DNA from: Herbinix sp.
GTDB lineage: Bacteria; Bacillota; Clostridia; Lachnospirales; Lachnospiraceae
Direction of reading: 5' to 3'
NCBI GenBank assembly: GCA_029239365.1
Contig: JAQZBA010000003.1
Coordinates: 1 to 35,186, forward strand
DNA length: 35,186 nucleotides
Shown piece by piece: positions 17,164 through 23,789 of the stretch. The notes under the pieces are model-generated. The model was not told where the DNA came from, did no database searches, and worked only from the letters and a program-made list of their open reading frames with translations. Numbering within the stretch: the stretch's first letter is position 1; every line of letters starts with the position of its first letter. The translations under genes were made by a program, and so were the position numbers.

Positions 17164-17233
17164 AAAGGCTGTATAGGAATAGGAGTTTGCCTGAGATTTC
17201 GGTCTCACCTGCTCCTATTCCGATACAGCCTTT
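17164..17233. terminator. Long bidirectional terminator hairpin between convergent ABC-F and NUDIX genes
   Basis: 22-bp arms aaaggctgtataggaataggag / ctcctattccgatacagccttt with one mismatch; inner TGAGA...TCTCA. Confidence 0.8.
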
Positions 17234-20304: not shown

Positions 20305-20535
20305 AGCGATACCTCCATGTTGGATCATCATTAATTGGTCTTGTACAATAGAAGCATCTTGGAAAATAATGCTGCCTATCTGAATTAGTTAAGAATTATC
20401 ATACTATATCTTGCAACATTTTCCTATTAAAAATCTATAAAGTTTCATAAAGAATCACATTAACAAACATACCTTACTTTAAATTAGTTTGTGTCCAGTG
20501 TGCCCTTTCACTTTTTGGTTTTGCGAGCACTCCAT

Positions 20536-21393
20536 CTAATCGTTCTCCGGTTTTATCCTTGCTTTGCTTTCATAATCATCTAAAAAGTTATATTGATGCT
20601 GCCTATCGTGATGACCGATGATGGTATCCAGATTCACGTCATGAATACTACGGAAAATATTCATATCAATACTTGGATTAGTCTGTCTAAACTTCTTTAT
20701 GAGTGATTTCATCTCCTGACGTTTTGATCCTCCGCCAGCATTGTCACTTATCGTACAATTCTCAGTGAATCTGCAGGCGCATTGGATAAACTGCAGATCA
20801 TTATACTGCTTCCAGGCAAGAATATCTGCTTCCTTCACGAGATACATTGGACGAATCAGCTGCATTCCGGGATGATTTGTACTATGAAGCTTCGGCATCA
20901 TCGTCTGTATCTGACCGGCATAGAGCATTCCCATGAGTACGGTCTCGATCACATCATCAAAATGGTGTCCAAGTGCTATCTTATTGCACCCCAATTCCTG
21001 CGCATTCTTATAGAGATACCCTCTTCGCATACGAGCACATAGGTAGCAGGGTGATTGGTCTACCTCTGCCACGATATGCCAGATCTGTGTCTCAAATATT
21101 CTAATCGGGATATTCAGAAGCTTGGCCTGAGTTACGATGGTCTGACGGTTTATCTCATTATAACCAGGATCCATGACTATGAACTCCAGCTCAAAGGCAA
21201 GCTTACCATGTCTTTGAACTTCCTGCATCAGCTTAGCTAATAGCATCGAGTCCTTACCTCCGGAGATACAAACCGCAATTTTATCTCCCTCTTCAATCAG
21301 TTTATAATCGTTGACTCCGTTAATAAATTTCTTCCATAAGGGTTTGCGGAATTTAGTAATAATATTTCTTTCTATTTCTTGATAACGTTCCAT
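20536..21393 (-). CDS. TtcA-like tRNA 2-thiolation protein (PP-loop ATPase)
   Basis: PP-loop 'CISGGKDSMLLAKL', 'PCYLCARMRRGYLYKNAQELGCNKIALGHHFDDVIETVLM', later cysteine pair 'CACRFTENC'. Confidence 0.88.
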   Translation of the reverse strand: MERYQEIERNIITKFRKPLWKKFINGVNDYKLIEEGDKIAVCISGGKDSMLLAKLMQEVQRHGKLAFELEFIVMDPGYNEINRQTIVTQAKLLNIPIRIFETQIWHIVAEVDQSPCYLCARMRRGYLYKNAQELGCNKIALGHHFDDVIETVLMGMLYAGQIQTMMPKLHSTNHPGMQLIRPMYLVKEADILAWKQYNDLQFIQCACRFTENCTISDNAGGGSKRQEMKSLIKKFRQTNPSIDMNIFRSIHDVNLDTIIGHHDRQHQYNFLDDYESKARIKPEND

Positions 21394-21441
21394 ATTCCAT
21401 CTACTTTCTTATAATTTTCATCGGGTAGTTTCATATTGTAA

Positions 21442-22569
21442 TCATTTATGTTCGGTCAGCTTCTCATAACAACGAGCGAATACTTTTAGAAATTGTTCCA
21501 CCTCTGCCAGGGTAGTCATATGGCTTATGCTTATTCGCCAGGAACACATGGCATTCTTCTTGTCCTTCGTTACTGCATAAACCGGACGAGAAGGTGCGTT
21601 TAGCACAGAACAAGCAGATTTCACTGAGATACATATCTCTTCCTCTGCCAAAGCTTCCTGAAAAAGCGCTGCCTTTACACCCTGAACACTGAGATTGATG
21701 ATATGAGGAACTGAGTGCTCCGTACTATTGATCCGTACCTTCTGATAACGTGAAAGCTCAGCAATCAACTTAGCAGATAACTCCTCAACATATTTATAGC
21801 GTTCCTCAAGGTGCTTAAGTACCAGCTCAAGGGATTTCTCAATAGATGCCGCCAGAGCCAGAGCAGGTGTTCCGCTTCGATAAATCGTAGTGCTGGTTCC
21901 TCCATGAATGAGTGGTTCCAGTGCTACCTGCTCCTTACGTATTAAGATACCACAACCATTCATCCCGAAGAACTTATGGGGTGTGAAGGTTAATAGATCA
22001 ATATGTTCTAATGAGATCGGTATCTTGCCAACCGCTTGGGTTGCATCTACGTGGAGGAAGCAGTTCGGATATTTTTGAACCAATTCTGCTATCTCAGAAA
22101 TTGGCTGTCGTACTCCCAATTCACTGTCCACATAGCAAATAGACACCAGCACTGTATCCTTACGAAGAAGTTCTTTCAGATGTGCAATATCCACCAGACC
22201 TTCCATTGTTATATCAACCAAATCAACTTCATAGCCTAAGGTCTGAAGATAGGTTAAGGCTCCACTAACGGAAGCATGCTCCAAGCAGGTTGAGATGATG
22301 TGCTTTCCATTGTCTTTATAGGCTTGTACCAAACCTTTAATTGCCAGATTATTTGCCTCACTTGCTCCTGAGGTATAGATAATCTCCGAGGGTTTCACCT
22401 GTAGAAGTGTTGCGATATTCGCAGTAATTTCACTTATTCTGGCATTTGCCATCTTACCAAGGGGATGAGTGGAGTTAGGATTCGCGATATAACCTTCGGT
22501 CTGGTCTATATAATATTCTAAAACGGTAGGGTCTACCGGAGTATTGGCTGCATAGTCAAGATATAACAT
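21442..22569 (-). CDS. NifS/IscS-like cysteine desulfurase
   Basis: 'YLDYAANTPVDPTVLE', 'YTSGASEANNLAIKG', 'HVDATQAVGKIPI...TFTPHKFFGMNGCGILI', 'KSACS'. Confidence 0.94.
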   Translation of the reverse strand: MLYLDYAANTPVDPTVLEYYIDQTEGYIANPNSTHPLGKMANARISEITANIATLLQVKPSEIIYTSGASEANNLAIKGLVQAYKDNGKHIISTCLEHASVSGALTYLQTLGYEVDLVDITMEGLVDIAHLKELLRKDTVLVSICYVDSELGVRQPISEIAELVQKYPNCFLHVDATQAVGKIPISLEHIDLLTFTPHKFFGMNGCGILIRKEQVALEPLIHGGTSTTIYRSGTPALALAASIEKSLELVLKHLEERYKYVEELSAKLIAELSRYQKVRINSTEHSVPHIINLSVQGVKAALFQEALAEEEICISVKSACSVLNAPSRPVYAVTKDKKNAMCSWRISISHMTTLAEVEQFLKVFARCYEKLTEHK

Positions 22570-22607
22570 TCCTTCACCTCAATCTATCATAGTAAAATCC
22601 ACAAGTA

Positions 22608-22694
22608 ACCCCTGTAAAGCCTAAATTGTATGAGAATGTCAGGCAGAACAAAATACTTCATGCCCGAACAACCCAGTTTAAGCCTTACAGGGGT
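22608..22694 (-). ncRNA. Candidate structured 5' leader RNA or small RNA upstream of the cysteine desulfurase gene
   Basis: Minus-strand arms ACCCCTGTAAGGCTTAAACTG / CAATTTAGGCTTTACAGGGGT (wobble pairs plus one mismatch) enclosing TCGGGCA...TGCCTGA. Confidence 0.6.
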
Positions 22695-22711
22695 CTTACA
22701 TATAGTACAAT

Positions 22712-22740
22712 ATTATATTTTGTATATCCAACTATGTCAA
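22712..22740 (-). promoter_or_regulatory. Consensus vegetative promoter TTGACA-N17-TATAAT
   Basis: Minus strand TTGACA(22740-22735), 17-nt spacer, TATAAT(22717-22712), shortly upstream of the hairpin at 22694. Confidence 0.85.
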
Positions 22741-22823
22741 TAGTTTTTATATGGAACTCATAAGTTATTTTCTTCGTTACCGTATTTTCTCTCATTTTTC
22801 CGTGAAGAAATTGCTATCTTTTC

Positions 22824-23465
22824 TTATTGCTCAAAACACTCCCGCAATTTCTTCAACGCTTTTTTTTCTATCCTACTGACATAACTTCTGGATATGCCCA
22901 GCTTCCCAGCAATTTCTCGTTGGGTAACTTCTTTTCGATTACTTAAGCCGTATCGTAAGCAGATGATTTCGCGTTCTCTATCAGTCAACACCTTACCGAT
23001 TATGTGATACAGTTTTTTAATATCGTCCTCAAGCACAATATTTTCTACAATATCAATTTCTGCTTCTTCAATGATATCTAAAAGATTTATTTCATTACCC
23101 TCCCGGTCAGACCCGATTGGATCATACAGATATACTTCCTTTGCTAGACGTTTACCACTTCTGAGCATCATTAGCAGTTCATTATCAATACAACGGGAGG
23201 CATAGGTAGCCAGGCGGATTCCTTTCTCTTCATCAAAGGTATCGATAGCCTTGATTAAGCCAATGGTTCCTATCGATATCAAATCATCGGTTTCTTTGTC
23301 TACCATATTGTATTTCTTCACAATATGAGCCACTAATCTGAGATTGTGCTCAATCAGTTTATCCCTTGCTGCTTTATCGCCTTCCTTGCATCGTTTCAGA
23401 TAGTCGGCTTCTTCCTTGGTGCTTAATGGCTTTGGAAATGACTTCACGAAGATAAGCACCCTCAA
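22824..23465 (-). CDS. sigK: Sporulation sigma factor SigK-like (uninterrupted; probable start TTG 23465 or GTG 23447)
   Basis: 'FPKPLSTKEEADYLKRCKEGDKAARDKLIEHNLRLVAHIVKKYN', 'KEVYLYDPIGSDREGNEINLLDII' matches sigma-K. Confidence 0.9.
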   Translation of the reverse strand: MRVLIFVKSFPKPLSTKEEADYLKRCKEGDKAARDKLIEHNLRLVAHIVKKYNMVDKETDDLISIGTIGLIKAIDTFDEEKGIRLATYASRCIDNELLMMLRSGKRLAKEVYLYDPIGSDREGNEINLLDIIEEAEIDIVENIVLEDDIKKLYHIIGKVLTDREREIICLRYGLSNRKEVTQREIAGKLGISRSYVSRIEKKALKKLRECFEQ

Positions 23466-23789
23466 TGCCCTAATAATTCATTTATATCATATGATGATAA
23501 ATGACATAAAGTGCCTATCCCTCTTAAAAAAGGACAGAAGGACTTACAGTTTTTCTAAGTAATATATTATTGGACATAGATAGCATGACTTTCATTCGCA
23601 TAATATTTATAATCCGACATTATTTGATGGAAGGATAGCACTTATACTTTCCTTTTTGTATGTACTGCATTATAATAGTAATACAAACAAAATCTAGCCC
23701 TGCACCCCTATAGGAATAGGACCTGCAGTAAAAAACCATGGGATAAATTTTTATCTCTATCCATTCAAAGAAGGAGTGCTGATTATTAC

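What the first reader, a model, noticed from the sequence alone, without database searches (positions are those of the whole stretch)
22604..22740. Structured leader or small RNA under a perfect consensus promoter upstream of a cysteine desulfurase gene
On the minus strand an exact TTGACA-N17-TATAAT promoter is followed within about 20 nt by a long hairpin: 21-nt arms pairing by Watson-Crick/GU with one mismatch, enclosing a 7-bp inner stem, ending about 40 nt before the NifS-like start codon. Arm differences form G-U pairs in the minus-strand transcript but would be A-C mismatches in the plus-strand transcript, which supports minus-strand RNA function. I see no strong U-run after the stem, so it is either a cis-acting leader sensing sulfur/Fe-S/tRNA thiolation status or a processed small RNA. 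In Bacillus, 6S-1 RNA lies in the neighbourhood of an iscS-type gene, but this element looks too short for 6S.
Basis: partly seen in the sequence, partly recalled or inferred. Interest (0 to 1): 0.75.

Follow-up and report, generated by a model that had tools for sequence, protein, structure and literature searches.

The report
Lineage-restricted hairpin in nifS mRNA leader
A strong RNA hairpin sits at the start of the messenger for a sulfur-handling gene pair (nifS-ttcA) in this Clostridia bacterium and, in the same form, in one sister species only, while the part shared by most relatives is the promoter in front of it, which carries a repressor-like box and also drives a partner tRNA-modification gene.

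Summary
On the minus strand an exact TTGACA-N17-TATAAT promoter (22740-22712) is followed by a long hairpin (22702-22600; folding z about -7). It matches no Rfam family and is single copy. A covariance model finds it in only 2 of 34 genus genomes, both times in the nifS leader. In the sister species the outer arms are 26/28 identical, the apical part 21/59, and all 28 predicted pairs are kept. It is probably a selected minus-strand RNA structure, but lineage-restricted: most other nifS leaders in the genus are unstructured; two have hairpins of different sequence.

What is conserved is the promoter: ATTGACATAGTAGGAATTA...TATAAT lies before nifS in most relatives, before tcdA elsewhere in this genome, and before ttcA in genomes lacking nifS. 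Its TAGTAGGAATTA box recurs as a 15-nt direct-repeat array upstream of an IscR-like Rrf2 gene. Best reading: an Rrf2/IscR-type operator controls a nifS-ttcA/tcdA regulon, and the hairpin is a 5'-terminal mRNA structure, most likely a stabiliser. No evidence for a riboswitch, 6S RNA or small RNA.

The parts
22711..22741 (-). promoter with overlapping conserved box: A-TTGACA-TAGTTGGATATACAAAA-TATAAT-A
   Evidence: Exact -35/-10. The motif ATTGACATASTAGGAWWTANNAWTTATWATA has 16 hits at up to 3 mismatches in 34 genus genomes against 0 in reversed-pattern controls; nearly all lie before nifS, ttcA or tcdA.
22600..22702 (-). whole leader hairpin (basal stem 22702-22699/22603-22600)
   Evidence: Fold z -7.0; covariance model match in G000 and G230 only, both at the nifS leader.
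22681..22695 (-). 5' arm of outer stem (15 pairs)
   Evidence: all pairs kept in the sister species.
22607..22621 (-). 3' arm of outer stem, followed by the tail ACTTGTGGAT
   Evidence: tail pattern GGGGKWWCTTGTGRAT with 0 mismatches occurs only in the nifS leaders of G000 and G202 among 34 genomes.
22631..22675 (-). apical part with inner helices; sequence not conserved, pairing kept in sister species
   Evidence: 21/59 identical.
22575..22580 (-). ribosome-binding site GAGGTG of nifS, outside the hairpin
   Evidence: Sequence.
21442..22569 (-). nifS/iscS-type cysteine desulfurase, 375 aa
20536..21393 (-). ttcA-type tRNA 2-thiocytidine synthetase homologue, 285 aa, probably same operon

Best explanation
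The region is the promoter and 5' UTR of a nifS-ttcA operon. Transcription probably starts near 22705 from a SigA-type promoter whose -35/spacer (TTGACATAGTWGGA) is also the binding box of an Rrf2-family repressor, most likely the IscR-like protein encoded next to iscS elsewhere in the genome. The same box stands before tcdA, so cysteine desulfurase, tRNA 2-thiocytidine synthesis and t6A dehydration form one regulon. The hairpin is the first structure in the mRNA, about 10 nt from the predicted 5' end, and leaves the ribosome-binding site free; I infer that it acts as a 5'-terminal stabiliser (hindering 5'-end-dependent decay) rather than as a sensor. Shown: promoter, hairpin, its conservation in one sister species, the shared box in nifS, ttcA and tcdA promoters, and the box array upstream of the iscR-like gene. 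Inferred: the start site, IscR binding, and the stabiliser function.
For: Hairpin: z -7; first structure behind the promoter with the RBS outside it; all 28 pairs kept and arms much more conserved than loop in G230; found only in nifS leaders. Two other relatives, L037 and L049, have hairpins of different sequence that also begin within about 25 nt of the -10 box, which fits a position-dependent rather than sequence-dependent role. Box: conserved in most genus nifS promoters and in separate tcdA and ttcA promoters. IscR: TAGGA boxes at exactly 15-nt spacing (21 of 28 successive spacings, 18 regions) upstream of the Rrf2 gene that precedes iscS; a matrix from the nifS/ttcA/tcdA spacers scores a median 11.4 there against 5.5 in genomic windows (1.2% as high). 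5' secondary structures are known to stabilise mRNA, with a 5' stem-loop in the B. subtilis aprE leader as an example (PMC3997798 and references in it).
Against: No RNA or binding data. The pair conservation rests on two sequences and does not beat shuffling (62/500). The hairpin is absent from the next closest relative (L032). The box similarity between nifS and iscR upstream regions is partial (many iscR copies read TAATAGGAATTA), those regions are not independent, and other Rrf2 proteins exist in the genome (4 loci). IscR and CymR motifs are reported to resemble each other (PMC3828012), so a CymR-type protein is possible.
Confidence: 0.45

Rival explanations
1. The hairpin is a dedicated cis-acting sensor (riboswitch, protein- or tRNA-binding leader) of sulfur, Fe-S or tRNA-thiolation status that controls nifS-ttcA.
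For: Stable two-tier structure kept in the sister species; conserved tail CTTGTG(G/A)AT; leader-specific.
Against: Present as a homologous structure in 2 of 16 nifS leaders of the genus; apical part unconserved in sequence (21/59), unlike ligand-binding cores; no terminator or RBS sequestration visible; no Rfam match.
Confidence: 0.12
2. The hairpin has no function: a palindromic remnant or chance insertion in the leader that is tolerated because it avoids the RBS.
For: Patchy distribution, unrelated hairpins in L037 and L049, other leaders do without; strong hairpins occur about once per 20 kb in this genome.
Against: Arms 26/28 identical against 21/59 in the apical part between species whose NifS proteins differ by 26%, and no broken pair; not dispersed; no match in plasmid or phage collections.
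Confidence: 0.28
3. A processed or independent small RNA made from the strong promoter, acting in trans.
For: Perfect promoter and a compact stable hairpin directly behind it.
Against: No U-run or terminator after the stem, and the RBS and nifS follow within 40 nt; the conserved promoter is present without this hairpin at nifS in relatives and at tcdA in this genome.
Confidence: 0.06
4. The inverted repeat works as DNA, for example as an operator palindrome.
For: Near-perfect inverted repeat with a conserved GC-rich core; regulators often bind palindromes.
Against: The arm differences within and between species keep pairing through G-U, which only RNA rewards; the model scores 117 bits on the minus strand and 28 on the plus strand.
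Confidence: 0.07

Closest known systems
5'-terminal mRNA stabiliser stem-loops (B. subtilis aprE leader, E. coli ompA/papA)
   Same: Strong stem-loop close to the 5' end, followed by an unpaired RBS.
   Different: Much longer (about 100 nt, two-tier), in a nifS-ttcA leader; stabilising effect not tested.
IscR/CymR-type Rrf2 operators
   Same: Box overlaps the -35 and spacer of a cysteine desulfurase promoter and recurs upstream of the IscR-like gene.
   Different: Box TAGTAGGAATTA, 15-nt direct repeats upstream of iscR; regulon includes ttcA and tcdA; binding untested.
6S-1 RNA near iscS-type genes
   Same: Structured RNA region near a cysteine desulfurase.
   Different: No Rfam 6S match, about 100 nt only, no terminator, part of the mRNA leader.
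Cysteine desulfurase paired with a tRNA thiolase (B. subtilis nifZ-thiI; PMC5372745)
   Same: Desulfurase encoded with a PP-loop tRNA thiolation enzyme.
   Different: Partner here is TtcA-like, and tcdA shares the promoter box.

Membership tests
Any Rfam 15 family, including 6S, T-box, SAM riboswitches | Covariance model score at or above gathering threshold | tested here: not met
   0 matches in the window; permissive scan of 22550-22760 gives only chance eukaryotic microRNA/snoRNA models far below threshold.
Conserved cis-regulatory RNA of nifS leaders | Same structure in leaders of most orthologues | tested here: not met
   Homologous structure in 2 of 16 genus nifS leaders.
Conserved cis-regulatory RNA of nifS leaders | Covariation beyond chance | tested here: inconclusive
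   All 28 pairs kept, 3 two-sided changes, but only two sequences; 62/500 shuffles as good.
Intrinsic terminator / attenuator | U-run directly after stem | tested here: not met
   Tail is ACTTGTGGATTTT; not called by the terminator scan.
Dispersed repeat / MITE | Several copies in the genome or on mobile DNA | tested here: not met
   Single copy by BLASTN and by covariance model; no plasmid or phage match.
5' mRNA stabiliser stem-loop | Stable stem close to the 5' end with free RBS | tested here: met
   given the predicted start near 22705 (the start itself is not measured).
5' mRNA stabiliser stem-loop | Longer half-life dependent on the stem | not testable with these tools
   Needs mRNA decay measurement.
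IscR (Rrf2) regulon member | Shares operator with the iscR promoter region | tested here: inconclusive
   Shared TAGGAATTA core and 15-nt arrays upstream of iscR, enriched over background, but the match is partial.
IscR (Rrf2) regulon member | IscR binds the promoter | not testable with these tools
   Needs gel shift or footprint.

The most novel reading that the evidence does not exclude
An undescribed Rrf2/IscR-type regulon in which a single operator, TTGACATAGTAGGAATTA, jointly controls a dedicated cysteine desulfurase, TtcA and TcdA, with a lineage-specific leader RNA adding post-transcriptional control by tRNA-thiolation or sulfur status in two species.
Probability: 0.12. Interest if true: 0.6.

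Novelty: new member of a known kind. Interest (0 to 1): 0.35.

Why it matters
The hairpin alone is a local mRNA feature of two species. The wider point is the promoter box: it ties a second cysteine desulfurase to ttcA and tcdA, in one operon or in separate ones of the same genome, and gives a concrete, testable candidate regulator (an IscR-like Rrf2 protein) for tRNA-sulfur modification genes in Lachnospiraceae-type Clostridia, where regulation of Fe-S and sulfur trafficking is poorly known.

Tried and rejected
BLASTN of the 176-nt region against 200 family genomes gave only chance-level matches. Tail-pattern search found no dispersed copies with a matching 5' arm outside nifS leaders. Rfam at permissive threshold: only chance microRNA models. 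Plasmid and phage BLASTN: none. A viral contigs pattern scan failed twice on a machine error, so that collection was not searched. The four-sequence alignment A1 was too divergent to support a common model. NifS orthologues from other genera of the family show no such box-plus-hairpin arrangement. A riboswitch or attenuator was set aside for lack of a terminator, RBS sequestration or a conserved core. A target-site duplication was looked for by eye (TACTAT on both sides in this genome, none in G230) and was not convincing.

Full report
Observation. The minus strand carries TTGACA (22740-22735), 17 nt, TATAAT (22717-22712), the only 12/12 sigma-70-type match in 20400-23500. Seventeen nt below the -10 box begins a long hairpin that ends 31-38 nt before the nifS ATG at 22569. 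The 161-nt region folds at -54.9 kcal/mol against -33.1 +/- 3.1 for dinucleotide shuffles (z -7.0, 0/200). No U-run or terminator-like site follows. ARAGORN and Rfam find nothing here; permissive Rfam matches are chance microRNA models.

Context. The genes are sigK (22824-23465, above the TIGR02846 cut-off), a NifS/IscS-superfamily cysteine desulfurase (21442-22569) and a TtcA-type protein (20536-21393), the last two below the equivalog cut-offs. The window lies in a 433-contig, 81%-complete genome; named close relatives are Clostridiales/Herbinix-type metagenome genomes.

Is the hairpin conserved? It is single copy. NifS orthologues exist in 16 of 34 genus genomes. Their 5' UTRs were compared: L031 (own) z -6.0, L033 (G230) z -4.1, L049 (G202) z -3.5, L037 (G225) a strong first hairpin in a long UTR (z -1.6 overall); the other twelve are 29-152 nt with z between -2.0 and +0.8. 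A model from L031 and L033 finds in 34 genomes only those two loci at strong scores (117 and 106 bits), both in the nifS leader; apart from their own opposite strands the next hit is E 0.08. L031 and L033 are sisters in the NifS tree (98/92), and L032, next to them, lacks the hairpin. The hairpins of L037 and L049 differ in sequence; L049 shares the tail GGGGNTACTTGTGGAT, which among 34 genomes occurs without mismatch to the pattern only in the G000 and G202 nifS leaders.

Is it selected as RNA? Between L031 and L033 the 14-bp arms are 26/28 identical and the apical part 21/59 (Fisher p 2e-7; the alignment is anchored on the arms, so the p value is optimistic). All 28 consensus pairs form in both, with 6 one-sided and 3 two-sided changes. 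Sliding the partner breaks half of them, but the shuffle control reaches the observed score in 62/500 cases, so covariation is not established. The model scores 117 bits on the minus strand and 28 on the plus strand. This supports a minus-strand RNA structure with modest strength.

What is conserved in the genus is the promoter. Most genus nifS promoters read ATTGACATAGTAGGAAT...TATWAT, with the spacer bases TA and GG of TAGTAGGA nearly as conserved as the hexamers. Searching this motif gives 16 hits at up to 3 mismatches in 34 genomes and none with the reversed pattern. Beyond nifS, it lies before tcdA in this genome (G000:C184:1918-1948) and in G230, and before ttcA in G209 and G220, where this nifS was not found. 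One weak hit, in G224, precedes a transporter-permease-like gene and is probably chance. At tcdA in this genome the leader is short and has no hairpin, so the box does not depend on it.

Candidate regulator. Four Rrf2 loci are in the genome. One (G000:C358) directly precedes a second cysteine desulfurase and so looks like IscR; another is followed by a gene that looks like an O-acetylhomoserine sulfhydrylase (from the sequence; not scanned against a library). The IscR-like gene is in 33 of 34 genomes. Its upstream region carries repeated ATAGGAATTA / AGTAGGAATTA boxes; in 18 regions, 21 of 28 successive TAGGA spacings are exactly 15 nt. A matrix made from the nifS/ttcA/tcdA spacers alone scores a median 11.4 in 29 such regions against 5.5 in genomic windows (1.2% as high), though these regions are related to each other. 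IscR- and CymR-type motifs of Clostridia are reported to be similar (PMC3828012), and the Rrf2 gene next to iscS in C. perfringens responds to cysteine limitation (PMC2940859). I therefore infer, not show, that an IscR-like repressor acts on this promoter.

Mechanism. The hairpin is the first structure in the message, lies about 10 nt from the predicted start and leaves the RBS free. 5' secondary structure is known to stabilise mRNA, with a 5' stem-loop in the B. subtilis aprE leader as an example (PMC3997798). The best fit is a 5'-terminal stabiliser; a functionless palindrome is the main rival, a sensor or small RNA less likely. The link between a desulfurase and TtcA/TcdA has precedent in dedicated desulfurase-thiolase pairs and in the csdA-csdE/tcdA neighbourhood of E. 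coli (PMC5372745).

Verdict. The finding is confirmed as a structure, reduced in scope from a general sensor to a lineage-restricted leader hairpin, and the more informative feature is the promoter box shared by nifS, ttcA and tcdA.

Noticed in passing
L129 (G000:C184:1918-1948) and L128 (G230:C338): tcdA (tRNA t6A dehydratase) has the same ATTGACATAGTAGGRAT promoter box as nifS, with a short leader.
   Followed up: yes
L121 (G209:C77), L119 (G220:C218): ttcA carries the same promoter box in genomes where this nifS was not found; in G209 the leader between box and ttcA is about 270 nt with its own inverted repeats.
   Followed up: partly
L150-L179, upstream of the IscR-like gene: Tandem 15-nt direct repeats (TAAAATAGTAGGAAT type) downstream of the iscR promoter in most of the genus: an unusual operator-like array.
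   Followed up: partly
window 17164-17233: Strong inverted repeat between convergent genes, probably a bidirectional terminator.
   Followed up: no
L034-L036, L038-L040, L043-L045, upstream of nifS: A rubredoxin gene lies directly upstream of nifS in many relatives; in G000 and G230 sigK takes its place.
   Followed up: no
L048/L052 (G255): A genome with two divergent NifS-type genes, one behind a response-regulator gene.
   Followed up: no
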